Part shown: piece by piece, positions 14,563 through 64,000 of the stretch
Numbering within the stretch: position 1 is the stretch's first letter
How the letters are laid out: each line of letters starts with the position of its first letter
NCBI GenBank assembly: GCA_949292775.1
Contig: CASFBL010000002.1
Coordinates: 1 to 64,000, forward strand
Direction of reading: 5' to 3'
Source: an uncultured Eubacteriales bacterium
Lineage (GTDB): Bacteria > Bacillota > Clostridia > Oscillospirales > Acutalibacteraceae
DNA: 64,000 nt
The notes under the pieces: generated by a model
The model's input: the letters and a program-made list of their open reading frames with translations, nothing else
Database searches by the model: none
What the model was told of the DNA's origin: nothing
Program-made: the position numbers and the translations under genes

Positions 14563-14997
14563 ATGGAATCTTCCACGAACAAAGAAGTTGCCGACATGCT
14601 CACAGAGCTGATTTTTCGGTTTTCCGGCGCGATACACAGAAGCACGACACGCCTCTCCGGCCCGAAAATCCAGTCTCATGCGTTTCATATTCTGTATTTA
14701 TTGGAACGCGCACAGGAAAAACGGCTGTCCATGAGCTTTTTGCTCACAGAGCTGAAAATGACAAAACAGCAGCTTTCCAAAATTATCAATGAACTTGAGG
14801 AATTTGGCTTTATTGAACGCATGCGCACGGACCGTGACCGCCGCAATGTGTTTATTCGGCTGACCGATAGAGGAAGCGCTTATTTCCAAGACAGCGCCAA
14901 GGCGGTTGCTGACCACATAGAGCAAAAACTCGAGAAAAAAGACCCCAGCCGCACCGAAACCATTCGTGCGCTGCTGTTGCAGTTATTCACATTTTAA
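14563..14997 (+). CDS. MarR family transcriptional regulator
   Basis: 144 residues, typical MarR length. The winged helix-turn-helix spans about residues 45-105, with MTKQQLSKIINELEEFG as the recognition helix region and the wing in RMRTDRDRRNVFIRLTDRG. MarR proteins are dimeric repressors released by small ligands or redox signals. It is divergent from citrate synthase across a 196-bp region carrying a matching palindrome, so it may regulate itself and that gene. The ligand is unknown. Confidence 0.87.
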   Translation: MESSTNKEVADMLTELIFRFSGAIHRSTTRLSGPKIQSHAFHILYLLERAQEKRLSMSFLLTELKMTKQQLSKIINELEEFGFIERMRTDRDRRNVFIRLTDRGSAYFQDSAKAVADHIEQKLEKKDPSRTETIRALLLQLFTF

Positions 14998-50495: not shown

Positions 50496-50993
50496 CTATG
50501 CTATATCCGGAGAAATGATTACATCAAACACTATGTCTGAAAAGTCATCATTAGGCTGACCATCGTTACAATGATAACGAAAATGATTTTCAGCAATGGT
50601 TTCCTTGATCATTGCTGCTCCCATGACCCATCTTTGTGTAACCCCATTTCCTTCATCCCATATGTTCCATATCTTTATTTCGTTGTTTCGGGCTACCCCG
50701 GAATATAGTAGCCCTTCATGCTCAGCAAGTGTTGGATAGCCTGCTTTAACCTTTTCATCCCAAATTGCAAAGCTATAATCTTTTTTATCAGAAGAATGAG
50801 AATAAAAGTTTCCTTCTCCCTTATCTATATTGATTCTAATGCCTTGCTTCCACTTTGAATCAATAGAAATTATTTTGATTCTCAACTGGAATTTTTCCGG
50901 GACTGTCAATCTATCCATTAATATTAAAGTTTTTCCGTTATACTGTATGGGCTTGCCCCGGGATTTTCTAAAAGCCGTTTGAAACTCTATCAA
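50496..50993 (-). CDS. Probable immunity protein of the Rhs HNH toxin
   Basis: 165 residues; the family is not recognised. It appears to be a mixed beta-rich soluble protein rich in Trp, Lys and Asp (KIWNIWDEG, then a FRYHCNDG segment). It lies seven bases downstream of the Rhs toxin tail, the usual place of a polymorphic-toxin immunity gene, which is the main reason for the call. The TTG at 50993 follows GGGAGGTGA; a frame opening at 51044 lies inside the toxin gene and is less likely. Confidence 0.55.
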   Translation of the reverse strand: MIEFQTAFRKSRGKPIQYNGKTLILMDRLTVPEKFQLRIKIISIDSKWKQGIRINIDKGEGNFYSHSSDKKDYSFAIWDEKVKAGYPTLAEHEGLLYSGVARNNEIKIWNIWDEGNGVTQRWVMGAAMIKETIAENHFRYHCNDGQPNDDFSDIVFDVIISPDIA

Positions 50994-51000
50994 TATAATT

Positions 51001-52512
51001 TCACCTCCCAGTATTTCTATATGGATCCACCAAAGCATGTTCATCTGGCCATAATGGCATGAGATTATCCGTAGTATTGGGGCCAGAATCTCTCTGAGGA
51101 ATTATATGATGCAATTCCATTGATTCTAATTCTCCGGTATTAGGATTAACGCTTTGTGGTGCTAAGCCCTTTTTCATTCTTTCAAGATTATCAGCATCAT
51201 AATTTCCTGCATTATAATACGCTTCATTTTTCCAATATCGTTGCCTTACGGTAGACCAAGCAGGTTCGTTGCCAGCCTTTGTAAGGTTATCTATCGGATC
51301 TCCTACATGCCAGCCAACATTATCAGTATTGCGTATAACATCACTTGCTGTATCAGCAATGTTATCTGTTTGCCGCAATGTATCGCTGGCAAGATCAAGG
51401 ATATCATCGGAAGCATCGATGGCGGAGTTGACTAACTTGCCGCCTTTACCAACTGCGTCGCCCCCAAGCGGAATGCAGGAAACATACGACAGAGCCGCGT
51501 TGGTATAATCGCCCTCTGCGAGATAGATTGTACCATTGATCGCATCGGCAACTTCACCAACGCCGGGAATAACGCCGACTGCATCCAGCGTATTGTGTAC
51601 GATATTGGATGCCAGCAGCTTGTCGAGGTCTTCACACAGTTTCTTGTATTCATAATAGGCTGCGGCTGTGGTAAAGGTTACGACTTTGTTGTCGCGCTCA
51701 TTATAGTAGCTGAAACTGCCGACTTGATCAGCGCTTGTAGGAGCTCGCAGGTTCTGTGGCCTTGTGGTCACATTTTCCTGCACTGTCGCCTGGCTTTCAT
51801 AATTTGCTTGCTGACTTCGGATTTGTGCAGACTGCTCATTATAATTTTTTACCGCTCTGTAAGACCCATAAGCGGCAGCAGCCACGATGACCGCACCGAT
51901 AAGCAAGCCAAACAGATGTCCGCTGGGATCGATCAGGTTGATCGGATTGTTGCGGGTGTAGGTATAAAGATGCCTGCTCAGCGGATCGTTGATCTCACCG
52001 AGATAGGTATCCTTTGTCATGAACCGGCTGGTTTCCGGGTCATAATACCTTGCGCGCAAATACTGCAAGCCGGTGGCTGCATCAGTATACTCGGCGTTGT
52101 ACCGGTACGGGTTATGTACGCCGGCTCTGGAGGCGTCCGCCTCTCCGTAGATGTTATACTCGTAGTATACCATGCTGGCTCCACGCTGTGAAGTCAAATT
52201 TGCTACGGAACCGCGACCATCATACAGATAGTATGCCTTTTCGCCGTTCTTAATATTTACGCTGTTCCTCTGCACGCCGTAGTCATACACATTACTCCAG
52301 CGGCCGTTGGAGCCAAACTCCATGAGTACCTGCGTGTACTCGGTGTTGACATCGTTGATGTACCCGGTCAGCTCATACTGAGACGCATTCCAGATCGATA
52401 TGTCGTTGGGGATGAGAAGCTCATCCTTTACCATCTCGCGGTCATACTCATAGGAGTCGCAGAAGTCCACGCCTGAGTAGACATCAAGGGCTGTGCCTTT
52501 GCCGTTGGTACT
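51001..52512 (-). pseudogene. 5'-truncated rhs gene: core end plus HNH toxin tip
   Basis: About 503 codons remain of what is normally a protein of more than 1,500 residues. The frame runs from a stop at 52513-52515 without a credible start. In order: YD-repeat/Rhs core end (ARYYDPETSRFMTKDTY, then NNPINLIDPSGH), a short hydrophobic helix (LLIGAVIVAAAAYGSYR), a pretoxin region (AVGVIPGVGEVADAING), and a C-terminal HNH/ENDO-VII-like nuclease tip with MELHHIIPQRDSGPNTTDNLMPL. Intact Rhs proteins deliver such tips to rival cells. The delivery part is missing here, but the toxin tip and its immunity gene look intact. Confidence 0.8.
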
Positions 52513-52964
52513 TTATGAACGATTGGCTCAAATTATATGTATGATGTCAATTTTCTGTTATGTGAGAGTTCAAATCCCCTCGCAAAGGGAATTTATCTAT
52601 TATACATCTATGGATTTGTACTTGCGAAAACCGCTTTTAGAAAAGCGAAAACCCCGATAAAATCGGGGTTTTCTCGGACAATATCTTTTTTGTTGTCCTC
52701 ATATGAAAGTAGTGACCTATTTTGATACGAAATGCACACCCTACTGACCTTTCGTGTAAAGGTTCAGAGAACGACGATCCCGTGAAATATCTGAAAACTG
52801 TGACAGTATATAAGCCGTTTGAAAATTAATAGACAAGGCAAGGCGGGTAAGCACTCAAAAATGATCCCCGCTGTTTTTTGCCTCTGTGCAAGGTGTACAT
52901 TGCTTCCCGCTTACATTTTGGACAGAAGATAGGGAAACAATTTAACTTCTTTTTCGGGAGAATA
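52513..52964. other. Intergenic junction region with terminator and scar-like sequence
   Basis: No gene is supported in these 452 bases. They hold a strong terminator (52647-52673) and two further small stems, GGACAA/TTGTCC near 52676-52698 and ACCTTT/AAAGGT near 52747-52763. The abrupt loss of the rhs frame at 52513 and the SPASM remnant on the other side suggest a recombination junction. No transposase, integrase or clear direct repeat was seen. Confidence 0.4.
52647..52673. terminator. Intrinsic terminator in the rhs-radical SAM junction
   Basis: A 12-bp perfect stem (52647-52658 with 52662-52673) with a GC core and flanking A and T runs; it could work in both directions. Confidence 0.8.
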
Positions 52965-53246
52965 TCACCCCAGCTGACCCGATATACATTCGAAAATATG
53001 GGAATAAAGTTTCTTGTAAGTGGTGCATAAATAGTTCACCGTCTCCGTATCATTGCGATTACAGCCAGACCCGCAGAATTCTTTTACTGAACATGAAGAG
53101 CAATGAGAGCCAACAATCCGGCGGCTTTGCTTGCACATTGCTTGATAATTTTCGGAAGTAATGATTCCTTCAAAATCCGTCTTCTCCAAACTACCAAGAG
53201 TTGTGTTCTTGTTCAGATCATAATCATCGCAGAACATCGCACGCAT
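52965..53246 (-). pseudogene. SPASM-domain-only remnant of a radical SAM protein
   Basis: 93 codons covering only an auxiliary iron-sulfur domain: MFCDDYDL...LGSL, then GSHCSSCSVKEFCGSGCNRND, and a last Cys in YLCTTYKKL. This is the end of a SPASM-type radical SAM enzyme; the catalytic CxxxCxxC half is absent. An in-frame TGA lies two codons before the ATG and no ribosome-binding site is seen. It starts 38 bases after the stop of the neighbouring radical SAM gene. It could be a leftover of a second, deleted enzyme. Confidence 0.65.
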
Positions 53247-53284: not shown

Positions 53285-54160
53285 CTATTTTCCCCGAGAA
53301 ATTCTTGTGGCCTCATCCGTACCACGCAAGCAATACTTACATGCTTCAACAGGTTTGTGGCGCCACATCAAGCGTTGTAATTGGCGGCGATTCTGTGTAG
53401 CTGTATTGTTAAGAACATCCACAAATTCACCCTCTATTTTATCAACAAGGCCCAAATCACAGCCATGACCGTGCCGTGGGCAGTAATACATCACACCGTT
53501 AAGCAAACTTTTAGAGCGGAGATTGCAACGGGCAAACTGTCGCGTGCGTTCCTTTAACGTGTGGTTATGGTTTTCGACCTCTCCGTAATTAATCCAGGTG
53601 CCGGGTTGGGGAACCTCATATTTTATGCCTTCAAGTTCTAATCGGGCAATAAGTTCTTGCTGGGTTTTTGCGGCAGAGGGATAGTTGCCCATGACAATAA
53701 CAACGTTTTTCTGCCGTAGCACTTCATATAACTCAGGGTCCTGCGGAATAATCGTGGCATTAGTAGGAATGCTGATTTTTCTGCATTTGTGGCTAGGAAG
53801 CTCTGCAACAAATCGCTTTAGGTCAGCGTGGAGAAACGGCTCTCCTCCTAATATGCGCATTTGTCCACAGACATCGAAGCACTCACTGAGCTTTCGAATA
53901 GAATGAATGACTGTGTCGCTATCTACATCATAGGGCTTATTATACAACGGCATGAGGTTAGCACAATCTGGACAACGGAGGTTGCACCTTGTTGTGATCG
54001 GGATTTCAACATAGTCTAAATAGAACCGCCAAGGCAGTAAATACTTTACCCCTGATGCACCGTAATACATAAACAACCGCCAAAGACGACTATAGTCACA
54101 GAAAAGAAAGTTGCTGTGCCACCACTGTTGCAGGCGGTTTTTAAAGAATTTTGTTCCCAT
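53285..54160 (-). CDS. Radical SAM protein of glycan-cluster type
   Basis: 291 residues. The SAM cluster motif is CNLRCPDC near residue 62, preceded by VEIPITTRCN and followed by RILGGEPFLH. The C-terminal part has further cysteines (ARCN, YYCPRHGHGC, ACKYCLRG) for an extra cluster. Related proteins sit in polysaccharide loci, where their reaction is undefined. ATG 54160 follows TAGGAGC; the frame opens six codons earlier. It is the last intact gene of the accessory operon and lies about 25 bases after the GT2 gene. Confidence 0.78.
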   Translation of the reverse strand: MGTKFFKNRLQQWWHSNFLFCDYSRLWRLFMYYGASGVKYLLPWRFYLDYVEIPITTRCNLRCPDCANLMPLYNKPYDVDSDTVIHSIRKLSECFDVCGQMRILGGEPFLHADLKRFVAELPSHKCRKISIPTNATIIPQDPELYEVLRQKNVVIVMGNYPSAAKTQQELIARLELEGIKYEVPQPGTWINYGEVENHNHTLKERTRQFARCNLRSKSLLNGVMYYCPRHGHGCDLGLVDKIEGEFVDVLNNTATQNRRQLQRLMWRHKPVEACKYCLRGTDEATRISRGK

Positions 54161-54185
54161 AATAAATGCTCCTACCATTAGAAGT

Positions 54186-55307
54186 TCAGAATAATCCCCA
54201 ACGAATCCTGCGCGAAAAACCGAACAAGCCTTGATCCACCCTTAATACTATACCGAAAAGCATATCGGGAAGAATGCGAGAAAGCTTGATCAAAATGAGG
54301 CAATGTCTTTCACTATAGTTGCAGTAGAGTGGCCGGACGCGTTTGCCGTTACTATAGTTGAATTGCGGGGAGTGCGTGCGGCGAGACCTCTTAATCACAT
54401 CATCAATGTAGTAAGAATTCTGTCGCCAGCCGGGAAGATTATCCGCAAAGAAGGCGTGAATAGTCTTTACTATATGAGTTCTTAGATCGAAGTTTAAATT
54501 AGTTCTGACGATTGCAGAGGCGCAAAGACGCATCGATTTTGAAAGCATAAAGAACGCTATCTCATCTTTTAAGGCATAACCGGATTTATCATCGCGAACA
54601 AATGAAGAAAGGTGCTCCATGACTTTAACCCAGTCGAGCCTTTCGTCCCCAAAGCCGGAGGTAATCCCTCCGTGGATCTCGTAATAATAGTGGTACAAAA
54701 CTTGCTTAACGGTGCCGATGTTTTTAGCATAGCAGAAGGCTTTTACTGCAAATATTTGGTCCTCGGTATAGCGTATTTCCTCTGGGAATTCCAATTTGTC
54801 GAGCAGCTCCTTTTTGATCAGCTTATCCCATGGTCCAACACTGATGCTTGAGAATAGATCCCTTCGATCTGTCATCAGAAAATTGTCGGCATCAAACAGG
54901 GGCGTTTGGGAAAACAGATGTGTCAATTCTCCGTTAGACAGTGTAATTCTGTCAAATTGGCATACAACTAAATCATTATTGTCGCGAATAGCCTTTTCAT
55001 ACATAGCGCGACAATAATCTGGCTCGATAGAGTCATCGCTGTCTACAAAAGCCACGTACTCTCCACAAGCCTTTGTTATACCATAGTTTCTGGCATGGCT
55101 TACACCCTTATTTTGAGTTGAGTGCACTTTGAACCATGGATAATTGGAGGCAAATTCATTTGCAATTTCTAAACTGCCGTCAATACTTCCGTCATTGATG
55201 ATTATAACTTCTATGTTATCTAATGTTTGAGCCGACAATGAGTCGAGGCATGTTCTGAAGTATTTTTCGGCATTGTATACCGGCACAATAACACTTACTT
55301 TACACAT
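54186..55307 (-). CDS. Glycosyltransferase family 2
   Basis: 373 residues. The GT-A nucleotide-sugar fold is clear: VSVIVPVYNAEKYFRTCLDSL at the N-terminus, IEVIIINDGSIDGS, and the metal-binding VDSDDSIEP. It would transfer a sugar from a nucleotide donor to a growing surface glycan or glycolipid in the cytoplasm. The ~130-residue C-terminal extension is basic and contains no obvious membrane helix. It is placed between the phosphoesterase and radical SAM genes in the same strand unit. Confidence 0.88.
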   Translation of the reverse strand: MCKVSVIVPVYNAEKYFRTCLDSLSAQTLDNIEVIIINDGSIDGSLEIANEFASNYPWFKVHSTQNKGVSHARNYGITKACGEYVAFVDSDDSIEPDYCRAMYEKAIRDNNDLVVCQFDRITLSNGELTHLFSQTPLFDADNFLMTDRRDLFSSISVGPWDKLIKKELLDKLEFPEEIRYTEDQIFAVKAFCYAKNIGTVKQVLYHYYYEIHGGITSGFGDERLDWVKVMEHLSSFVRDDKSGYALKDEIAFFMLSKSMRLCASAIVRTNLNFDLRTHIVKTIHAFFADNLPGWRQNSYYIDDVIKRSRRTHSPQFNYSNGKRVRPLYCNYSERHCLILIKLSRILPDMLFGIVLRVDQGLFGFSRRIRWGLF

Positions 55308-55338
55308 AGCCCCTCCTCATAGAATACCTGCGACCATT

Positions 55339-55896
55339 CTATATGCTGTACCATTGTTTGTTGTTATCTATAAGCTCTTCAAGAGTAACGGGATAATAAT
55401 GATTAATCTCCGGACAACAGTTTAACGCCCGAGGGAGATATTGTTGAATGTATGCAAAAGAAGGTCTATTCCTTCTCGTATGTATGTGTGCGTGGATTAA
55501 GTAAGACGTCGCATCGCGATTGCTGTTATACCATTCAAGCATAGGATAGTGACAGAGGGTTAAATAACAGTTGATGCGCTCGATAAGTAACATATTCTTG
55601 ATTTCAAGAAAACAAGAATCCATTAGCGCCGGATCGACTAATGAAATCCAGTCAGGATCGTGGTTTCCAAGAATCAGGTGTTTCTGACCTGGCATTCGCG
55701 GGAAGTAGGATCCTGGATTTTGAAAGTTCCTGTCAAAAAGATCGCCTAAGATATAGACATGGTCATTGTTTGTTACCCGGCTCTCCCAGTTATCCAAGAT
55801 GAAGTTGTCCATTTCTTGTGTACTGTGGAATGCTGTGCGAATCGAAAGCAACGCTTCGCATCCAAAGTGGGTATCCCCAATAAAATAATATGCCAT
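55339..55896 (-). CDS. Calcineurin-like metallophosphoesterase
   Basis: 185 residues with the two-metal motifs GDTHFG (7-12), ILGDLFD, LGNHDPD, LCHYPM and HAHIHTRR. The compact size fits small phosphoesterases such as those acting on nucleotides or sugar phosphates; the substrate is unknown. It is AT-rich like its neighbours, begins 15 bases after the TmcAL-like gene, and is probably co-transcribed. Confidence 0.86.
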   Translation of the reverse strand: MAYYFIGDTHFGCEALLSIRTAFHSTQEMDNFILDNWESRVTNNDHVYILGDLFDRNFQNPGSYFPRMPGQKHLILGNHDPDWISLVDPALMDSCFLEIKNMLLIERINCYLTLCHYPMLEWYNSNRDATSYLIHAHIHTRRNRPSFAYIQQYLPRALNCCPEINHYYPVTLEELIDNNKQWYSI

Positions 55897-55910
55897 TCTT
55901 CTCCCTCAAA

Positions 55911-57131
55911 TCAAACCTTATCACAAGTCCTGCGATCGGCATAAAGTTTATCAGCAGCAAGATCAATGCTTAGTTGTGACTTAGCAATAGGTGAAAGAGC
56001 CACATCCCTATCATTACACAAGACCGGAATGGAACTTGTACTGCAGATTCGTTCGAGCAAAAGATTTCCTTTTGCGGACGTGGACAAAACTTTTGCAAAG
56101 CAACAAATTTTGCTTTCAACGAAATTATCTACTACATCGTCCCGAATTCCCAATAAGATATGCACCAAGCAACGACTAACCCTAGCGGGAGAAATGCGAT
56201 TAGAAGAAATGTGGTCAACTAAGGATGTCCAAGAATCACATTTCTGCCATCCTTGAGCAATCTTATCCGCAAGAGCGGGTGTTACAAGACGAAAATCAGT
56301 TAAAGGGCCAGAATATTCAGATAACTTCTCGCATAGGCTTTCCCAAAAATCATTTTCGGACAAGGGACGCTGATTTCGAAGAGAGTTAATTAGAATCTGA
56401 TAGCTTTGAGATGGAAGATACTTCATGACGCTTGAAATAGAATTGTTTGTGCTTTGATGGATTTGTTTGCGGATAGCTGTTGCAGAAGCAAAGTTGTTTT
56501 CTCGATTCATATTACTATGACTATCATCCAAGTATGCTTGTCCTATCCTGGGATTTGTTGCGGGAACAATACTGGATTGAATGCGAGAAAGCGCATTAAG
56601 ATAGAGAATACCAAGAATATTATTTGGCTGATTAACGGCACCTAAGCAGTCAGCATACAGTTTTTTATCTAGAATGGCAGAAAGACATGTTTCCTGGCAG
56701 TCTGCAGCAGAAAGACCAGTTTTCATCGAAGAACGGATAATACTGAAAGATTTTTCATCAGCCATCATTGCTTGAGATATGCAGGAAATAGTGTCAATGT
56801 TTCCTGACTCTGATCCAAAGAGCAGATGTGAAACTAAACCCAAAGAGTCCAGAAGAGAGACAGAACCCAAGGCAAAATCGTCCAGAGAGCCGGTTGCAAA
56901 GCAGGCAGGAATCTCGAAAACGATGTCTGCCCCTTCGGCTATTGCCATTTGTGCTCTGTTGTGTTTATCAATTATTGCAGGGGTGCCCCTTTGAACAAAA
57001 TTGCCACTCATCGCAATGACACAAAAATCGGCCTGCAGATATTCTTTCGCGTAGGAAATCTGGTGCTTATGCCCATTATGGAAAGGATTGTATTCTGCTA
57101 TAATACCAACTACTTTATTTTTCATATCCAT
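55911..57131 (-). CDS. TmcAL-like nucleotidyltransferase (tRNA-Met cytidine acetate ligase homologue)
   Basis: 406 residues. The N-terminus has GIIAEYNPFHNGHKHQI (catalytic HxGH), then IAMSGNFVQRGTPAIIDKHNRAQMA, and later NFASATAIRKQI, all family hallmarks. TmcAL adenylates acetate and makes ac4C34 in elongator tRNA-Met. It usually stands among housekeeping genes; here it is embedded in an accessory operon. The start is uncertain: ATG 57131 (eight bases after the lactonase-like gene) or ATG 57125. No strong ribosome-binding site is seen, which suggests translational coupling. Confidence 0.82.
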   Translation of the reverse strand: MDMKNKVVGIIAEYNPFHNGHKHQISYAKEYLQADFCVIAMSGNFVQRGTPAIIDKHNRAQMAIAEGADIVFEIPACFATGSLDDFALGSVSLLDSLGLVSHLLFGSESGNIDTISCISQAMMADEKSFSIIRSSMKTGLSAADCQETCLSAILDKKLYADCLGAVNQPNNILGILYLNALSRIQSSIVPATNPRIGQAYLDDSHSNMNRENNFASATAIRKQIHQSTNNSISSVMKYLPSQSYQILINSLRNQRPLSENDFWESLCEKLSEYSGPLTDFRLVTPALADKIAQGWQKCDSWTSLVDHISSNRISPARVSRCLVHILLGIRDDVVDNFVESKICCFAKVLSTSAKGNLLLERICSTSSIPVLCNDRDVALSPIAKSQLSIDLAADKLYADRRTCDKV

Positions 57132-57138
57132 ATACCAA

Positions 57139-58263
57139 TTAATGACGGGGATCAAACAAAGTCATACTACTTGGGGAGATTAGGGACGATTCCTCCGATG
57201 TTTGATGACTCAAGCTCCCATCAAGACTAATTTTAATATGAACCACAGCCTTGCCTGTACTGCAAGCAACAAACATATTTTTATCATCAGGAGTAATTAC
57301 TAGTGCCCTAGGGCTTTCATAATGCACAGGATAAGACTGTAAGAATCGCAATCTCCCATCACCACCTATGGAAAAAGCACTTATGCTGCTAGTCTTCCTA
57401 ATGAGAGTATAGAGGACAGTTCCGGCGTGATTTACTGCAATTGCAGACTGTTCAATCGGCTCCTCCAAGGAGCCCAAAAGCTCAAGAGCGGGAATTACCT
57501 GTAATTGGCGAATTTCGTTTTCGCATATTTTGAAGACAAACACTGCGTTTTGTTTCTCTGAATTGAAATACGCAATTGGGAGACGTGGATGAATGACACC
57601 ATAGCGTGGAGCGCTGGCTTTGCCATTGGGATTAACAACGCTCGTCAAAAGAGGGGAACCGTAGTCGTCAAGGGTCAATGTGTATATCAAGTCACTACCT
57701 GTATCGCATACAAGAGACTGACAATTTTTAGCATCATATGTGATGCTATGAAGATGTGGGTTATCAGAAGCATTGTTTGCGTGAGGTGCTACCCAGCAAG
57801 AAGTCGGTCCTTTGATGATGCCGTCTTGTGTTACATCAAACACTTCAAGTGCGGCATCGTCATATATTTTTTTGCTGCGCAGTATTCCTTCAGCGGTTAG
57901 GTCAACCTTCAATATCCAGTCTCTCTTTGCATGATTACATACCAGAAGCCGACGCTTATCAGAGATGTAGTGCAAATAACAAGGCAAAACGGTATGGGTA
58001 TTTACTCTGGACAATAATTTAAGATTGCCTGTTCGAGAGTCGATTCGAAAGCAAAGCACTTGTCCGCCAGGGACACCGTTGCATTCTAGACGTTCGTTTA
58101 CACAAAACAGATATGCATTCTTATCATCAACGGCAAGAAACCCTGCAGAAATATCTGTATGCCGTGTTCCAAGAAATTCTAATGTCCCCTCATTCTCTAT
58201 GTAGCGGAAGATAGAAATCCCGCCTTCCCCAAAAAGGTTTTTATTTCCTACATATAAGAACAT
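57139..58263 (-). CDS. Lactonase-family seven-bladed beta-propeller protein
   Basis: 374 residues of repeated beta-blade units, with the family pattern FLYVGNKN at the start, SYxxHxES-like PVHYESPRALVITPDDKNMFVA near the end, and CWVAPHANNASDNPHLHSITYD in the middle. Relatives are 6-phosphogluconolactonase-type enzymes, but many are of unknown substrate, and no pentose-phosphate genes lie nearby. No signal peptide, so cytoplasmic. ATG 58263 follows AAGGTGGGGC; the frame opens six codons earlier. It is in the middle of the accessory operon. Confidence 0.75.
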   Translation of the reverse strand: MFLYVGNKNLFGEGGISIFRYIENEGTLEFLGTRHTDISAGFLAVDDKNAYLFCVNERLECNGVPGGQVLCFRIDSRTGNLKLLSRVNTHTVLPCYLHYISDKRRLLVCNHAKRDWILKVDLTAEGILRSKKIYDDAALEVFDVTQDGIIKGPTSCWVAPHANNASDNPHLHSITYDAKNCQSLVCDTGSDLIYTLTLDDYGSPLLTSVVNPNGKASAPRYGVIHPRLPIAYFNSEKQNAVFVFKICENEIRQLQVIPALELLGSLEEPIEQSAIAVNHAGTVLYTLIRKTSSISAFSIGGDGRLRFLQSYPVHYESPRALVITPDDKNMFVACSTGKAVVHIKISLDGSLSHQTSEESSLISPSSMTLFDPRH

Positions 58264-58317
58264 ATTGCCCCACCTTGTCATCTAAGTTCTTGTCGGAATG
58301 CTATTTGTGTTTGCCAA

Positions 58318-59364
58318 TTAGGCTTCTATGGCGGCATCCTTTTTGGCGTTGATAATGGTACCACTGATCAAGCCAATTGTCGTAATGGCAAAGAGGGCTC
58401 CTAGCAGCAGAACAGGAGAAAGGGATTTAGTAAAATGATAAGCAGCAAGTGCAATTATAACGCCCAAAAAGTGTCCGACGTTTTCAGAGAATACCCATAC
58501 TTGATCATGGTACTCTTTGTACTTTAAGAGCGACTTCTTTATGCAAAATACATTGCCTCCGCCAAACCCAGTAAGTGCCCAAAGAATCATTGCAACGAGA
58601 CTATATTGCTCTACAGTAATGTACATTCCTATCAGCAAACCGGCAACAAGGATGTGTCCGCCAACCAAAAAGTGAAGCCACGACTTTGTTTTTGTAAGCT
58701 TCACAAGAGGCTCAGTGAGAATATACGGGATCCAGTTTGCAACAAACCAAAAGCTTGCGGCCAAAGGACTATCGTAAACAAACAGCGAGATCAGCAGCAT
58801 GGAGTAACAATATACAAAGTAGTGCATTTGGTGCACCGTCATTGCCCAGCAAATGCGGTTCTTACCATATTGTCCATGGATCAGCTTTGTGAGCCAGCAG
58901 TCATCTTCGTACTTAGGACAGAGAAGCGTCAGTATGAGTGTCATAACACTTATGGCAACAAGTGCATATGCGCCGTAGTTATACATAACAGCCGAGATCA
59001 AGAAGCCGGTGACGCGAAAACAGCGCTTTCTCCAGCGAGGCTCTTTTGATTTAACAGCACTACGCAAAGTTTGAATAATGGTGGACAGCAACGCAAAACA
59101 CGCGAAGGCACAGATATATCTGTATAATGGATTGTCCAAGAAGACAATTCCTGTTGCAAAAAGGCATGCTATTGCGGCAAACAGGCCCTGCATCCGGCGC
59201 AGTTTCTTATTCAGGAAGAATAGTAGAATATTGCCGATCTGATACGCTATTGCGAGGCATAAAGCTCCCTCAATAGAATAGCCGGCGCCAATACCCCAAA
59301 GGACTGCACCTACTTCAATCATTCCGGAAAAAATACACGTGACATAAAAAGTGAATACAAGCAT
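58318..59364 (-). CDS. MFS-like multi-pass membrane protein
   Basis: 348 residues with about ten hydrophobic helices spaced as in a major-facilitator-like carrier, plus charged loops (KKLRRMQG, KSKEPRWRKR). No specific family signature was recognised, and it is shorter than the usual 400 residues of MFS proteins. It could export the product of the surrounding pathway or import a precursor. It follows the SPL-type radical SAM gene by 15 bases on the same strand. Confidence 0.6.
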   Translation of the reverse strand: MLVFTFYVTCIFSGMIEVGAVLWGIGAGYSIEGALCLAIAYQIGNILLFFLNKKLRRMQGLFAAIACLFATGIVFLDNPLYRYICAFACFALLSTIIQTLRSAVKSKEPRWRKRCFRVTGFLISAVMYNYGAYALVAISVMTLILTLLCPKYEDDCWLTKLIHGQYGKNRICWAMTVHQMHYFVYCYSMLLISLFVYDSPLAASFWFVANWIPYILTEPLVKLTKTKSWLHFLVGGHILVAGLLIGMYITVEQYSLVAMILWALTGFGGGNVFCIKKSLLKYKEYHDQVWVFSENVGHFLGVIIALAAYHFTKSLSPVLLLGALFAITTIGLISGTIINAKKDAAIEA

Positions 59365-59379
59365 AGGTATACCTCTTTT

Positions 59380-60204
59380 CTACTGGGTGGTAAATGACCC
59401 ATGATGAAAATAAATTCTACAAGGAATGTGAAGCATATCACAGCATTGCCTGATGTTTTGTTCTAAATCATTCCAATAAGAAAGATCTTTTTGATGATAG
59501 ATTTTTTCAAATAGAGGTGCTTTTTCGGGGTATTCTTGAGAGATAAAGGAAAGTACTCGCGCTTTGTAACTCCCACGTAAATTTAGATTTTCAAAACAGG
59601 CATAATCAACATATCCTGCAACTTGTTCCAAAAGCGCCTCATAATCAGAGAGACCTGGAAAAAAAGGAGCAACAAACAGATATGTGGAAATTCCGGCGCT
59701 ATGTAGGGTCTTGAGAGTCTCAATGCGATCTTTTACTGAGGCGGCATAAGGCTCGGTCTTGCTTCTAAACAAATCATCTGTGGTGTTTAAGGAGACGCCT
59801 ACAGCAATATTTGAAATTCTTTTTAGAAGATCAATATCCCTGCAAACCAACTTGGATTTTGTTAAAATCTCGACCCGAGCAGCACAGGATGATAACTGCT
59901 TGAGGACACTTTGCGTTATACAATATTTAGACTCAAATGGATTATAAGCATCTGTCACAGAACCAATAAGAATAGTGTCTGTGGGCAAAACTTTACGAAG
60001 GTCAAGATCCGTAGTGCATTTTTTCGCTTCAATGAAAGCTCCCCATGGCTCAGCATGCTGAGAGAAACGCCGCATAAACTCTGCATAGCAATAAATGCAT
60101 CCATGTGTACAGCCAAGATACGGATTGATAACATAGTCGGCGTCTGGCAGCTTCGACTTCGTCAGCATTTGTTTGGTTTCTTTAACGGATACTTGTATCT
60201 TCAT
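59380..60204 (-). CDS. SPL-type radical SAM protein
   Basis: 274 residues. The SAM motif is CTHGCIYCYA near residue 32, preceded by VINPYLGC, and followed by ILIGSVTDAYNPFE and VSLNTTDD, as in the COG1533/Rv2578c branch of spore photoproduct lyase relatives. Those proteins are mostly uncharacterised. It lacks the N-terminal part of a true spore lyase. It begins four bases after the SPASM radical SAM gene, so two different radical enzymes are made together. Confidence 0.82.
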   Translation of the reverse strand: MKIQVSVKETKQMLTKSKLPDADYVINPYLGCTHGCIYCYAEFMRRFSQHAEPWGAFIEAKKCTTDLDLRKVLPTDTILIGSVTDAYNPFESKYCITQSVLKQLSSCAARVEILTKSKLVCRDIDLLKRISNIAVGVSLNTTDDLFRSKTEPYAASVKDRIETLKTLHSAGISTYLFVAPFFPGLSDYEALLEQVAGYVDYACFENLNLRGSYKARVLSFISQEYPEKAPLFEKIYHQKDLSYWNDLEQNIRQCCDMLHIPCRIYFHHGSFTTQ

Positions 60205-60208
60205 ATTA

Positions 60209-61435
60209 TTAACACGAATCCTTACGATAGAGCGGGCAAGCAGGATCTACTGCTTGCATTGCAGTGTAGATATCTTGTACAGAAATGGCATTATTCGGAC
60301 GTCCGCAAAGTTCGTGCGTAGCTGCAACGATTCTGCTGCCACCAGAACACTTCACGGGACAGCCATTGCAACGATTATCGGACGATGTAAATGCAGCTGT
60401 TTGTTGAAATACAGAGTCGGAGGTATGGAGCATCTCATCAAGAGTGCCAGGATGTGTGAGAAGATTGCCAGAGGACAGTTGCTTCCAGCATCCGGTTGTA
60501 CACCAAGGATCAAAGACAACATTACATTCTGGATCGATTCCGATAGATGACAGGGCGTCAGGATTTCCAATATGATCATACAAATAGGTGTCCATTCCCA
60601 GAAGCAATGCTGCGTGGATGGACTCTATGGAGTGATGAATATGAAAGTCGAGTCCTGTGTTAGTAGCTCCGTGCATCAAAGAAATCAGCAAATGGAGATA
60701 ATCAGATGCATCCGGAATCAAATCCTGGTGAAGAGCCATCCTACCTACGGGAATTGCTCTATGCACACTGTATTGCTTTATTCCAATGTCAGTCAAATAC
60801 TGCATAAGTGAAGGAAGTTCTGCCATATTCTTCTTAGTGGCAACAGAAGTTACTTCAATTTTACTGGAGTTTGCTGGATTTTTACAGAGATTCCGAACAG
60901 TTGTGGTGGCCCGTGTGAATGCGTCAATGTCGTCGTTTCCGGCCCACCAATTGTGGTAATCTCTAAGTCCGTTGATGCTTGTTCCGATATAGGAAACATA
61001 TTGCAACGCTTCAGTTAGGAGCAGTTCAGAATTATCCAGTGCCGCATTAGTATCAACACCAACATTCTCAGGACCAAAGTAGTCGGCGGCTAACTTTAGT
61101 ACATCTAGAATGTCGTGTCGTAAAAACGGCTCACCACCGCCAATATTAACAAATATGCGCTTGCCGGTCTGATAAGAGTACTCCTTAAGTTTGTAGAATA
61201 CTTTATTGATTTGTGTAATTGTAGGAGCACAGGAAATGGGCCGCATATCACGCGAAAATGCTGCGTTGGTACCACACCCCTTACACTTCAGAATGCAATT
61301 ATGAAGGATATCAAAGACGACGCCTACTTTAGGAGATGCTTTCCTTGTGGCAAAACGGCGCTCTAGATAAACTCGTAGTTCTTCCTTTGTGTCATCACTG
61401 AGACTGGCATAGAATTGTTTTATGGACTCTTGCAT
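60209..61435 (-). CDS. Radical SAM/SPASM-like enzyme
   Basis: 408 residues. The SAM motif CILKCKGC lies near residue 48, then NIGGGEPFLRHDIL. The C-terminal region has two cysteine groups (DPWCTTGC and CNGCPVKCSGGS) that fit a SPASM/twitch extra-cluster domain. Enzymes of this type modify peptides or small molecules; no precursor peptide was found nearby. The first ~35 residues form an amphipathic helix. ATG 61435 follows GAGGGCAAG; the frame opens five codons earlier. It ends four bases before the SPL-type gene. Confidence 0.8.
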   Translation of the reverse strand: MQESIKQFYASLSDDTKEELRVYLERRFATRKASPKVGVVFDILHNCILKCKGCGTNAAFSRDMRPISCAPTITQINKVFYKLKEYSYQTGKRIFVNIGGGEPFLRHDILDVLKLAADYFGPENVGVDTNAALDNSELLLTEALQYVSYIGTSINGLRDYHNWWAGNDDIDAFTRATTTVRNLCKNPANSSKIEVTSVATKKNMAELPSLMQYLTDIGIKQYSVHRAIPVGRMALHQDLIPDASDYLHLLISLMHGATNTGLDFHIHHSIESIHAALLLGMDTYLYDHIGNPDALSSIGIDPECNVVFDPWCTTGCWKQLSSGNLLTHPGTLDEMLHTSDSVFQQTAAFTSSDNRCNGCPVKCSGGSRIVAATHELCGRPNNAISVQDIYTAMQAVDPACPLYRKDSC

Positions 61436-61455
61436 AGCTTGCCCTCGCAAACTTC

Positions 61456-61926
61456 TTATATTTCATATTGCTTTAAGATATATAGTTTGGCATCTATATC
61501 AAACATCTCCTGATACGGCATGCCATCTATATACCTCCATGTTTCAATTCTGGTAGGCGTGATTTGGTAAACCCGTTCGTTATCCATGTGTGAATATCTT
61601 TGTGCTGCACGAGGATAATGTGCGGTAAAGAGTTGAAGAAATGGCTTATTGCAAGGATGTACAGGACTTTCGATCTCTTTGCATATTCCTTGAACTTGAA
61701 CATGCTGGAAGCAGACGGAAACAAACGGTGTTTCCTTGATGTGAATCGCCTTCAGCATAGTTCTATCCGACTGGAAATAGATTTTTTCGTCCTGTAAGAT
61801 GCAACTTACCGAACGTACATATGGTTTACCATCAAAACATGTAGCCAATGCACCAATCGTATGATCCCCAAGTTCTTCAAACAATTGTTGCTTTTTGGCA
61901 TAAAAGGGATTGGCAGTATCAATCAT
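61456..61926 (-). CDS. Pyridoxamine 5'-phosphate oxidase-like flavin split-barrel protein
   Basis: 156 residues. The split-barrel pattern is visible: HTIGALATCFDGKPYVRSVS, then IYFQSDRTMLKAIHIKE, then FVSVCFQHVQVQG. Members bind FMN or F420 and reduce or oxidise small substrates. The ATG at 61926 overlaps the stop of the KdsC-like gene (ATGA), so it is coupled to Kdo activation. It might supply a redox step to the radical SAM enzymes; that is speculation. Confidence 0.78.
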   Translation of the reverse strand: MIDTANPFYAKKQQLFEELGDHTIGALATCFDGKPYVRSVSCILQDEKIYFQSDRTMLKAIHIKETPFVSVCFQHVQVQGICKEIESPVHPCNKPFLQLFTAHYPRAAQRYSHMDNERVYQITPTRIETWRYIDGMPYQEMFDIDAKLYILKQYEI

Positions 61927-62402
61927 ACTTTCGCTCCGCTCTGCTGTGCTACAATCCATTCAGCAAACTCACGAAGAGCACCTTCGCCACCCTTTGCCTT
62001 GCAAACATATGTCACTGCAGCCTTTACAGGTTCGATTGCATCGCTAGGGCAGCCTGATATGCCCGCAAGTTTAATCGCCGGTAAATCATTATAGTCATCA
62101 CCAATAAATGCAATCTCGCTCAAGGAATAACCTTTTTCTTCAGCAAGCTGCGTAACAACTGCGTTTTTATCATCGCGGCCACAAAACACTAGAGAGACAC
62201 CAAGCTCTTCGCACCGTTTAGGGACAATTTGCGATTTTCGTCCGGTAATTACAGCCGGTTCAATCCCGTTCTTGGGCAATATCTCCTTAAGTGCCCAACC
62301 GTCACGTGCATTGAAAGTCTTAAACAATTCACCATTTGCAGAAATATGCAGCTTATTGTCTGTCATCACGCCGTCGACATCTGAACATAACAGTTTTATC
62401 AT
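61923..62402 (-). CDS. KdsC-like HAD phosphatase (YrbI family)
   Basis: 159 residues. The HAD motifs are SDVDGVMTD (nucleophile D8, D10) at the N-terminus, AVITGRKS, and FIGDDYNDLPAIK. The size and motifs fit 3-deoxy-octulosonate 8-phosphate phosphatase (KdsC) or a close sugar-phosphate phosphatase. Beside kdsB, KdsC is the natural reading. ATG 62402 follows AAGGAGAGAG; an earlier frame opening lies inside kdsB. Its stop overlaps the next start. Confidence 0.85.
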   Translation of the reverse strand: MIKLLCSDVDGVMTDNKLHISANGELFKTFNARDGWALKEILPKNGIEPAVITGRKSQIVPKRCEELGVSLVFCGRDDKNAVVTQLAEEKGYSLSEIAFIGDDYNDLPAIKLAGISGCPSDAIEPVKAAVTYVCKAKGGEGALREFAEWIVAQQSGAKV

Positions 62403-62415
62403 AGTATCTCTCTCC

Positions 62416-63168
62416 TTAGACTTCGTAGTTCTGTTGTTTGATAATGGAAACAACCTTTTCAAGGTCGCTGAGCGTATCTACGGCAACGGAGGACTCTTCT
62501 GCTTCGATAAATTGCACAGGCCAGCCATTTTCCATAAAACGTAGCATTTCAACATCTTCGATTCTCTCGTTTTTTGCCTTTCCAATAGTCTTCCCGTGTT
62601 TAGCAAAGAACGCCAATGCTTCTTTGGTGAATGCATAAATACCAAGCTGCTTGTAGAAGCTGTAAGAAGATGTTCCCTTAGGATGAGGTGCAGCTGCACG
62701 CGTCAAATAGAGACCAATGTTATCTGCTCTCGTGATGGCCTTAACAACGGTAGGATTGCATACCTCAACCGGATCAATGATTCTGGTCATCAAATTGGAT
62801 ATCTGTACATTACAGTTCTTAGATAAGAAGGGCTGGAATACTTTTTTGATTTCATCGGGCTGCACAAGTGGTTCATCGCCTTGAACATTCACATATAGAT
62901 CTGCAGGGACCTTGGACGCTATTTCTGCAACTCTGTCTGTTCCGGTCAAATGCGTATCCGATGTCATTTCAACACACATTTCCAATTCACGGCAGGCACT
63001 CACGATTCGTTCGTCGTCCGTGGCTACAATGACTTGTGAGAACTCTTTAACCTTCTTGCATTGTTCGTATACCCACCATATCATGGGTTTTCCGCATATA
63101 TCTGCAAGAGGTTTCCCGGGGAAACGGCTCGATTTATATCTTGCAGGAATGACACATACAATGTTCAT
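62416..63168 (-). CDS. kdsB: 3-deoxy-manno-octulosonate cytidylyltransferase
   Basis: 250 residues, the normal KdsB length. It has IPARYKSSRFPGKPLADICGKPM at the N-terminus (described as the R-x-S-S-R-x-P-G-K-P motif), then VNVQGDEPL and HPKGTSSYSFYKQLGIYAF. It makes CMP-Kdo from CTP and Kdo. Kdo is best known from Gram-negative lipopolysaccharide, so a Gram-positive host points to a capsular or other glycan. kdsA is not in the window but could lie beyond the right edge, upstream in the operon. Confidence 0.9.
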   Translation of the reverse strand: MNIVCVIPARYKSSRFPGKPLADICGKPMIWWVYEQCKKVKEFSQVIVATDDERIVSACRELEMCVEMTSDTHLTGTDRVAEIASKVPADLYVNVQGDEPLVQPDEIKKVFQPFLSKNCNVQISNLMTRIIDPVEVCNPTVVKAITRADNIGLYLTRAAAPHPKGTSSYSFYKQLGIYAFTKEALAFFAKHGKTIGKAKNERIEDVEMLRFMENGWPVQFIEAEESSVAVDTLSDLEKVVSIIKQQNYEV

Positions 63169-63256
63169 AGCAACCTCTTTCTAACCACATCAGAACATGA
63201 TTGTTCTGAGTTCCAGTTGGTTATTATTTTAAATCTATTGTGGCATTAGCTTTACT

Positions 63257-63985
63257 TCAGACTTCCTGAATACCTTGCTTATGGCCATACTCATTTTCCA
63301 TTGCCTCGGCAAATTGTTCACAACTCATGCTAAGTATGTCTTCCAATCGCGGATCTGCAGTGAAAAGGCCTTGGTTAAATAACGCACGCGTGAACTTAAA
63401 ATTACAAAACACATCATGTTTTGCAAACTGATTTGCAAATGCAAAATCGTCCATTTTCTTCTGCACTTGGTTGCTGGCGTATCCCTCAGTATAGTGCCGG
63501 TTCAAGTATAAGTTGTTGTCCAAAACAGTAAGATTGAGCTTTCCGTATGGGAGGAGATCTGTCAGAACAATCTGCAACATATTAGGTGAGACACCATGCT
63601 GCATTGTATATGGCGCTCTATTGGCATAGCGAACCTGCAATGTTTGTTTTAAGGTATCCCAGAAGGGTACCTGTAACTTGTATTTTAGTACAGCAAAAGA
63701 AAGATCTGAGAGAAATACGGGATCATCCATAGATGCAACCGTTGTGGCGTGCATGCCATTATAGTACGACACATCTGTTGGAATGGACTTATAATAACCG
63801 CCGACTTTACCGTTTCCAATATAGGCATACCTGATCACAACACGATTATCGGTAGCAAGATGAACCGGGGTTTTATTATCAGATGGACCGATAATGTAGA
63901 TAGCCTTGCCTTGCAAATATTTAGCAAAGGAACTGTGCGTATCTGCCATTTCAGGATGAATTACCGGCAATAGGCTTTGCTCCAT
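63257..63985 (-). CDS. Possible GT29/sialyltransferase-like glycosyltransferase, perhaps partial
   Basis: 242 visible residues; the family is uncertain. GKAIYIIGPSDN, then NRVVIRYAYIGN, then a VSPNMLQIVLTDLL...NLTVLDNNLYLN...EGY run follows the order seen in GT29-like sialyl- or Kdo-transferases (V-G-x-x-x, R-x-N, late G-F-D-F-Y/H-x-G-Y). The position directly before kdsB supports a CMP-sugar user. The frame stays open to the right edge and no ribosome-binding site precedes ATG 63985, so the true start may lie outside. Confidence 0.4.
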   Translation of the reverse strand: MEQSLLPVIHPEMADTHSSFAKYLQGKAIYIIGPSDNKTPVHLATDNRVVIRYAYIGNGKVGGYYKSIPTDVSYYNGMHATTVASMDDPVFLSDLSFAVLKYKLQVPFWDTLKQTLQVRYANRAPYTMQHGVSPNMLQIVLTDLLPYGKLNLTVLDNNLYLNRHYTEGYASNQVQKKMDDFAFANQFAKHDVFCNFKFTRALFNQGLFTADPRLEDILSMSCEQFAEAMENEYGHKQGIQEV

Positions 63986-64000
63986 GGAAGCATATGTTGT

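What the first reader, a model, noticed from the sequence alone, without database searches (positions are those of the whole stretch)
53285..63985. Accessory operon combining CMP-Kdo supply, three radical SAM enzymes, a flavoprotein and a carrier
Twelve co-directional genes with overlaps or gaps of a few bases read, in order: GT-like, KdsB, KdsC-like, flavin split barrel, SPASM radical SAM, SPL-type radical SAM, MFS-like carrier, lactonase-like propeller, TmcAL-like, phosphoesterase, GT2, radical SAM. I know of no described pathway with this set. A plausible reading is a surface glycan containing Kdo or a modified Kdo-like sugar, tailored by radical chemistry (inference). The block is more AT-rich than the core and continues past the right edge.
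Basis: partly seen in the sequence, partly recalled or inferred. Interest (0 to 1): 0.78.

Follow-up and report, generated by a model that had tools for sequence, protein, structure and literature searches.

The report
Mosaic operon with two-radical-SAM cassette
A foreign-looking operon in a Clostridia genome joins genes that activate a Kdo-like sugar to an undescribed set of two radical enzymes and a membrane protein, a set that turns up rarely, without the sugar genes, in three bacterial phyla.

Summary
In detail: twelve open, tightly packed minus-strand genes at 53285-63985, AT-rich, continuing right into an ABC importer. KdsB passes TIGR00466 and the phosphatase TIGR01670. In 20 KdsB loci of the same family none of the operon's radical SAM or carrier genes was found; no KdsB or KdsC was found in 19 stretches (17 distinct) around the SPL-type enzyme or carrier. 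No kdsA or kdsD over cut-off was found in the genome. Instead, the carrier belongs to a membrane family (M) with no Pfam match over cut-off. In 8 of 8 other loci found, M lies within 3.5 kb of an SPL-type (B) and a SPASM-type (A) radical SAM, in 7 of 8 also beside a dihydroorotate-dehydrogenase-like protein (D), in Bacillota, Verrucomicrobiota and Actinomycetota. The window has B, M, a distant A, and a split-barrel protein instead of D. The cassette resembles NCBI's 'radical SAM mobile pair'; my searches found no paper on either. Best reading: a mosaic accessory operon, a CMP-Kdo-type module plus a mobile two-radical-SAM cassette. Substrate and chemistry are unknown.

The parts
63257..64000 (-). 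GT-like protein, 429 aa, continues to contig position 64546; position fits a CMP-sugar transferase (inference)
   Evidence: no Pfam/NCBIfam match over cut-off, best PDB E 0.3 (17); profile comparison with MptE-like proteins beside KdsB not significant
62416..63168 (-). KdsB, CMP-Kdo synthetase type
   Evidence: TIGR00466 158.4 bits over 155.2; 1gq9 E 2.4e-45
61923..62462 (-). KdsC-type HAD phosphatase (likely start 20 codons later, by eye)
   Evidence: TIGR01670 135.2 over 106.95; KdsC equivalog PRK09484 138.7 under 208
61456..61959 (-). split-barrel protein of the PNPOx class, 167 aa; flavin binding inferred from the family
   Evidence: PF01243 41.8 bits over 28.1; 2a2j E 4.9e-5
60209..61450 (-). 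SPASM-type radical SAM protein (position of A)
   Evidence: PF04055 29.3 bits (cut-off 29.5), best NCBIfam TIGR04133 62.8 of 425; 45.6 bits to a profile of eight A proteins
59380..60204 (-). SPL/PA0069-type radical SAM protein (B)
   Evidence: TIGR04470 261.5 bits, cut-off 410; 355.8 bits to a profile of eight module B proteins
58318..59364 (-). M: polytopic membrane protein of an unnamed family
   Evidence: No Pfam match for this protein; PDB best E 0.09, profile none; 33 invariant columns in 9 members; near A and B in 8 of 8 other loci
57139..58281 (-). lactonase-type seven-bladed propeller
   Evidence: PF10282 151.7 bits
55911..57155 (-). TmcAL-type nucleotidyltransferase, second copy in the genome
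   Evidence: PF05636 345.3 bits; other copy at C13, 323.6 bits against 302.3 here, both under the NF010191 cut-off of 360
55339..55896 (-). calcineurin-like phosphoesterase
   Evidence: PF00149 31.4 bits; phrog_547 119.4 bits
54186..55307 (-). family 2 glycosyltransferase
   Evidence: PF00535 128.3 bits
53285..54178 (-). third radical SAM protein, closest solved relative 7wzv
   Evidence: PF04055 37.7 bits; 7wzv E 3.4e-9
52965..53246 (-). SPASM-domain fragment, probably remnant of a further radical SAM gene
   Evidence: TIGR04085 28.5 bits over 27, PF13186 20.4 under 21.5; stops upstream in its frame
52647..52673 (-). terminator-like stem, probable end of the operon
   Evidence: 12 pairs, 6 G-C

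Best explanation
An accessory, probably horizontally acquired mosaic operon in which units of different origin stand together. Unit 1 (GT-like, KdsB, KdsC-type) would dephosphorylate a 3-deoxy-ulosonic acid phosphate, activate the acid with CMP and transfer it to a glycan; the acid must come from outside this operon. Unit 2 (split-barrel protein, SPASM radical SAM, SPL-type radical SAM, membrane protein M) is a divergent copy of a rare cassette A-B-M plus a flavoprotein-type gene that is found across phyla. Its likely working: the flavoprotein handles electrons or one redox step, A and B each cleave S-adenosylmethionine to open or remodel a small molecule, and M carries substrate or product across the membrane. 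Shown: gene content, open frames, separate recurrence of the two units. Inferred: transcription as one unit, flavin binding, electron flow, transport, a small-molecule substrate. GT2 and the third radical SAM may be a further, glycan-tailoring unit.
For: A three-row alignment of M was used to scan the 84,980-species collection; all 8 loci found carry A and B within 3.5 kb of M and 7 of 8 carry D. One of the 8 (L100 = L087) was first found through B, so the unbiased figure for B is 7 of 7. They lie in three phyla, in orders A-M-B-D, A-B-D-M and A-x-M-x-x-B. 0 of 19 stretches (17 distinct) around B or M carry KdsB, KdsC, GT-like, PPOX, TmcAL or the third radical SAM by tblastn at E<=1e-3. 0 of 20 KdsB loci carry A, B, M or PPOX at E<=1e-4. 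B of the window is closest to a module B protein (49% to L099) and falls outside the group of mobile-pair and other B proteins (88/98 support). The SPASM gene is found only in the own genome among 300 family genomes (E<=1e-40) and 391 class genomes (E<=1e-20). Low GC; integrase remnants and a tRNA-Leu some 20 kb to the right.
Against: The window's A shares only 17-23% identity with module A proteins and fits TIGR04133 (62.8 bits) better than the A profile (45.6), so A may be an unrelated SPASM enzyme in the same place. D is missing, and PPOX belongs to another family than D. Tight packing of KdsC, PPOX and A could mean that the units do cooperate. B's exact place in the tree is unresolved. No matching repeat at the island's left end and no empty site could be shown. 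No substrate, no expression data, no structure.
Confidence: 0.6

Rival explanations
1. One pathway: a surface glycan with Kdo or a Kdo-like acid that the SPASM and SPL radical SAM enzymes and the split-barrel protein modify.
For: All genes co-directional with small gaps; KdsB real; GT2 present; the third radical SAM resembles 7wzv, which I recall as the sugar-acting AprD4 (recalled; one search did not confirm it).
Against: No co-occurrence of the SPASM/SPL/M genes with KdsB or KdsC seen outside the window; no kdsA or kdsD over cut-off and no DRE-TIM aldolase found in the genome (other aldolase types not searched); importer to the right.
Confidence: 0.15
2. A detoxification or resistance cassette like the radical SAM mobile pair: B, a second radical SAM, a flavoprotein and a membrane protein protect against a toxic compound.
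For: Mobile-pair cassettes carry MarR-type regulators (9 of 13 viral-contig loci, several of them near-copies), a chloramphenicol acetyltransferase next door in one plasmid, a PPOX gene in another, nitroreductase or flavin-reductase genes in 4 of 10 family loci.
Against: No mobile-pair A near the window cassette and no MarR-type hit within 40 kb; none of the flavoprotein queries hit in 12 of 13 viral loci; I found no reported phenotype.
Confidence: 0.2
3. Haem or other metal-chelate uptake followed by radical opening of the chelate.
For: FecCD-type permease, ATPase and Peripla_BP_2 protein directly upstream; solved relatives of the binding protein include ones deposited as iron- or nickel-complex binders (4hn9, 4ls3), the best (4ovk) without a named ligand.
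Against: No haem- or B12-specific model shown passes its cut-off for any of the three; PPOX has no second domain of the kind I recall for HutZ-type haem oxygenases; the A-B-M loci elsewhere carry no PBP or permease homologue.
Confidence: 0.08

Closest known systems
Radical SAM mobile pair (TIGR04470 protein B, TIGR04471 protein A, TIGR04472 MarR-type regulator)
   Same: An SPL/PA0069-type B radical SAM next to a second radical SAM; matches on plasmids and viral contigs; sometimes with a flavoprotein-type gene.
   Different: Window B is under the cut-off; the partner is a SPASM enzyme, not TIGR04471; M is present, the regulator absent.
CMP-Kdo pathway (KdsA-KdsD-KdsC-KdsB plus Kdo transferase)
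   Same: KdsB and a KdsC-type phosphatase adjacent, with a putative transferase upstream, as in the family relative L051 (by eye).
   Different: No kdsA or kdsD over cut-off in the genome; transferase not recognisable by sequence.
7wzv-type radical SAM enzymes (recalled as the aminoglycoside enzyme AprD4)
   Same: Third radical SAM matches over 119 residues, E 3.4e-9, and sits beside a GT2.
   Different: Only the catalytic part aligns; substrate unknown.

Membership tests
Radical SAM mobile pair | B protein over the TIGR04470 cut-off (410 bits) | tested here: not met
   261.5 bits; five of eight module B proteins scanned, 122-312.5
Radical SAM mobile pair | adjacent TIGR04471 protein A | tested here: not met
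   Partner is SPASM type; tblastn with a TIGR04471 protein (L091) finds nothing in the region at E 1e-3
Radical SAM mobile pair | adjacent MarR-type regulator | tested here: not met
   Only one weak hit, window 14749-14967, about 44 kb from B
A-M-B-D cassette (defined here) | M protein | tested here: met
   24-29% identity to the eight others; shares the 33 invariant columns by construction of that count
A-M-B-D cassette (defined here) | B adjacent and closer to module B than to mobile-pair B | tested here: inconclusive
   Adjacent, nearest row L099, outside the mobile-pair side at 88/98, but base of tree open
A-M-B-D cassette (defined here) | A of the same subfamily | tested here: not met
   45.6 bits against 407-546 for the members that built the profile; best NCBIfam model differs
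A-M-B-D cassette (defined here) | DHOD-like D | tested here: not met
   No D homologue in the region; also absent in L099/L103
CMP-Kdo synthesis | KdsB equivalog | tested here: met
   TIGR00466 158.4 over 155.2
CMP-Kdo synthesis | KdsC equivalog | tested here: inconclusive
   Subfamily TIGR01670 met, PRK09484 equivalog not met
CMP-Kdo synthesis | KdsA and KdsD in the genome | tested here: not met
   TIGR01362 105 bits of 314; TIGR00393 30.1 of 203.7; assembly 98.6% complete, so loss by assembly is possible
Major facilitator superfamily | match to a known transporter family or fold | tested here: inconclusive
   No Pfam match over cut-off in six members, one weak NMN_transporter match; no PDB profile match; structure prediction failed or was off

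The most novel reading that the evidence does not exclude
A-M-B-D is an undescribed anaerobic pathway in which two unlike radical SAM enzymes, a flavoprotein and a dedicated membrane protein make or destroy an unknown small molecule; it has spread rarely across at least three phyla, at least once into an island with restriction-type genes, and in this genome has been wired to CMP-Kdo-type sugar activation, which could give a radical-modified ulosonic-acid product not seen before.
Probability: 0.3. Interest if true: 0.78.

Novelty: new variant of a known kind. Interest (0 to 1): 0.5.

Why it matters
It separates a tempting but unlikely pathway (radical-tailored Kdo) from what recurs: a four-part cassette with a membrane protein family that has no name in Pfam. 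If it is a pathway, it gives a defined, testable gene set for the function of the SPL/PA0069-type radical SAM enzymes, which NCBI names only as 'mobile pair' or locus-named families. B-like matches lie on 39 plasmid records, 24 of them from Bacteroides, Parabacteroides or Phocaeicola, and I found no function for them in print: searches returned nothing, and of the 69 papers of one search I saw a listing of 20, one of which named PA0069 only as a label site (passage).

Tried and rejected
Kdo tailoring by the SPASM/SPL pair: rejected as the leading reading for lack of any co-occurrence seen. RiPP reading: small ORFs listed upstream of A in six loci and downstream in five; by eye the only shared one is a 31-32-residue ORF upstream of A in L101 and L105, whose whole upstream DNA is 83% alike, and it is not seen in L087, L102 or L099. 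Defence-system reading: A of the window matches viperin models at 40.6 bits, like many other radical SAM models, B two candidate-system models at 21.5-22.7 bits, D none; L087 does lie beside a type III methyltransferase and an HKD+Snf2 helicase and near genes shared with L102, which may only show that it sits on an island. Haem uptake: see rivals. GT-like protein as an MptE-like transferase: motif resemblance by eye, hhalign probability 0.4%, not supported. att-site search with the tRNA-Leu: no long copy near the left end. DNA of the left flank against three same-genus genomes: nothing, so no empty site could be shown. Plasmid searches for SPASM gave five distant radical SAM proteins; for GT-like, M, A and D none at the limits used. 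Pattern scans of viral contigs found no SPASM, M or GT-like relatives. M in 2 of 341 class genomes and, with a nine-row profile, 1 of 398 phylum genomes, the own one counted in both. Promoter and terminator scans no better than shuffles in the window; in the stretch to the right promoter-like sites were 25 against 17.4 (sd 3.5), terminators 8 against 7.8. Rfam: only the tRNA. Distance correlations between A, B, M and D (r 0.87-0.97) are not used as proof, because shared species history alone can give such values.
Full report
Check of the observation. The window is contig C2:1-64000 of a 2.16-Mb, 44-contig genome, 98.6% complete. Gaps are between -47 and +88 bases and the larger overlaps disappear with plausible later start codons (start choice by eye). 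Pfam and NCBIfam confirm most labels. The block continues to the right: the GT-like gene ends at 64546, followed by a periplasmic binding protein, ATPase and FecCD permease and a YccF gene. On the left a strong terminator-like stem follows a SPASM-domain fragment. GC over 53285-67452 is 0.426, below every 14-kb stretch sampled in window 1-46000 (0.490-0.537).

The sugar part. KdsB passes the equivalog model and aligns over its whole length with solved CMP-Kdo synthetases. KdsB is found in 37 of 300 genomes of the family, the own one included (E<=1e-15). I fetched 20 of the other loci, from 4.4 to 19.9 kb long; L039 and L040 look like copies of one another. In 15 of 20, by eye from similar N-termini, a DRE-TIM aldolase-type gene lies directly downstream, one of them tested (L041, PF00682); in 2 of 20 (L050, L051) KdsA- and KdsD-like genes follow, by eye; in the same-genus genome (L037) an HpcH/HpaI aldolase follows and an MptE-like protein precedes. 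So CMP-ulosonate glycans look ordinary in this family. The window's own operon has neither aldolase nor kdsA. In its genome kdsA and kdsD models stay far under cut-off and the DRE-TIM type is not found (a search without a positive control); other aldolase types were not searched. The source of the acid is therefore open.

The radical SAM part. The SPASM protein is found in 1 of 300 family genomes (E<=1e-40) and 1 of 391 class genomes (E<=1e-20), the own one. The SPL-type protein B has, besides the own genome, nine family genomes with matches over 200 bits among 250 searched. One of these (L087) also carries the window's 'MFS-like' gene, here M, next to B and behind another SPASM-type radical SAM. 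A second locus, from 341 class genomes searched with M (L099), shows the same three. With an alignment of the three M proteins I scanned the 84,980-species collection: 80 stretches matched a pattern, 8 encoded an M relative. The scan needs exact pattern matches, and 80 may be a cap, so 8 is a lower bound. L100 and L103 are the loci already seen. All 8 have A and B, within 3.5 kb of M; 7 of 8 have D. L087/L100 was chosen through B, so B beside M is unbiased in 7 of 7. D is called dihydroorotate-dehydrogenase-like on moderate grounds: PRK07565 59.6 bits (cut-off 303) in L087, PF01180 35.8 (27) in L107, 22.5 (under cut-off) in L102; FMN binding is inferred. Two D proteins (L106, L107) carry a C-terminal stretch with the cysteine spacing of a two-cluster ferredoxin (by eye). 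L101 and L105 are near-copies, so the independent cases number about seven. They come from several Clostridia, one Verrucomicrobia and one Actinomycetota assembly, by their titles metagenome-derived.

What the window shares with this cassette. M shares 24-29% identity with the eight others, with 33 invariant columns including E17, R101, K113-R114, H178-Q179-x-H181-Y-F, H237, G268-G270 and E294-x-x-G-H298. None of six M proteins scanned has a Pfam match over cut-off; the weak matches differ between members, and the nine-row profile finds nothing in the PDB at E<=1. B is closest to the module B of L099 (49%) and lies outside the group of mobile-pair and other B proteins (88/98), but the base of the tree is unresolved. 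A is only distantly like module A (45.6 bits) and instead of D there is a PPOX protein of another family. The window is thus a divergent or rebuilt relative, not a plain member.

Relation to the mobile pair. TIGR04471 proteins over cut-off stand next to B in 3 of 3 family loci tested (L091, L092, L094); the L092 regulator reaches 206.4 of 240 bits of TIGR04472. On plasmids 39 records match B (E<=1e-20), of which I read three; all three carry an annotated pair A, two a pair-system MarR regulator. Of 13 viral-contig loci, several near-copies, 12 carry a pair A homologue and 9 the regulator. A flavoprotein-type gene lies near B in 5 of 10 family loci (D in one, flavin-reductase type in three, nitroreductase in one), in 1 of 3 plasmids read (PPOX) and in 1 of 13 viral loci; the association exists in places but is not general. 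The window B fails the TIGR04470 cut-off and has neither TIGR04471 nor the regulator nearby, so it is not filed as a mobile pair. Window PPOX and the L109 PPOX are barely alike (E 0.023).

Do the two parts belong together? 0 of 20 KdsB loci contain a homologue of GT-like, PPOX, A, B, M, lactonase, TmcAL, phosphoesterase or the third radical SAM at tblastn E<=1e-4; GT2 is in 18, KdsC in one, an ABC ATPase in two. 0 of 19 stretches around B or M (302,950 bases, 17 distinct) contain KdsB, KdsC, GT-like, PPOX, lactonase, TmcAL, phosphoesterase, third radical SAM, permease or PBP at E<=1e-3. The lack of any shared case argues for a mosaic, but one rare operon may still have combined them to new use; the tight KdsC-PPOX-SPASM joints are the best argument for that.

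Other genes. TmcAL is a second copy; the genome has another on C13. The third radical SAM resembles 7wzv over its catalytic part, which I recall as the sugar-acting AprD4; the paper search listing did not confirm the code. Solved relatives of the binding protein include iron- and nickel-complex binders, but no substrate can be named.

Literature. Searches of the held open-access library for 'radical SAM mobile pair', 'radical SAM' with 'mobile pair', with 'CMP-Kdo', with the KdsB name, and for radical SAM with spore photoproduct lyase, dihydroorotate dehydrogenase, gene cluster and transporter returned no paper. Searches returned papers of which I saw listings only (20 of 69, 7 of 7, 4 of 4, 5 of 31,718 and 5 of 13), and passages of two: PMC7159879 (for the neighbouring GTPase genes) and PMC7485682 (PA0069 as a label site only). 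Subscription papers and preprints are not in the library.

Verdict. The Kdo-tailoring story is unlikely. The most interesting content is the undescribed A-M-B-D cassette, to which the window led. Its function is unknown; I rate a small-molecule redox/radical pathway with a dedicated membrane protein as most likely.

Noticed in passing
contig C2:67889-87448 (right of the window; L002 5889-20000, L003): Long, almost wholly co-directional run with two DO-GTPase-type proteins (PF19993) and an Hsp70-like protein by eye at 79209-81464; looks like the GTPase-centric conflict systems of PMC7159879 (passages).
   Followed up: partly
contig C2:88268-88955 and 89997-90080: Integrase remnants (Pfam) beside a tRNA-Leu, a likely old island end; no long matching repeat found near the left end.
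   Followed up: partly
window 50496-52470, minus strand: Rhs-repeat C-terminal fragment ending in an HNH-like sequence, followed by a small ORF that could be its immunity gene; by eye only.
   Followed up: no
L039-L049 and L054-L056 (KdsB loci): Conserved set in the family: an 'NSVYQL'-type protein, GT2, KdsB, DRE-TIM aldolase and often a HAD phosphatase, suggesting that an aldolase replaces KdsA for CMP-ulosonate glycans in these Clostridia (by eye; in L048 and L055 opposite-strand ORFs hide part of it).
   Followed up: partly
L101 and L105: The A-M-B-D cassette is flanked in both by alike genes of about 330 and 1250 residues without Pfam matches over cut-off in L101; L087 and L102 share another flanking pair.
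   Followed up: partly
L099 (6411-14926): Here A, M and B are interleaved with an alpha-amylase-type and a starch-synthase-type (GT5) gene and followed by a TIM-barrel gene, the only module locus in which I saw sugar enzymes inside.
   Followed up: partly
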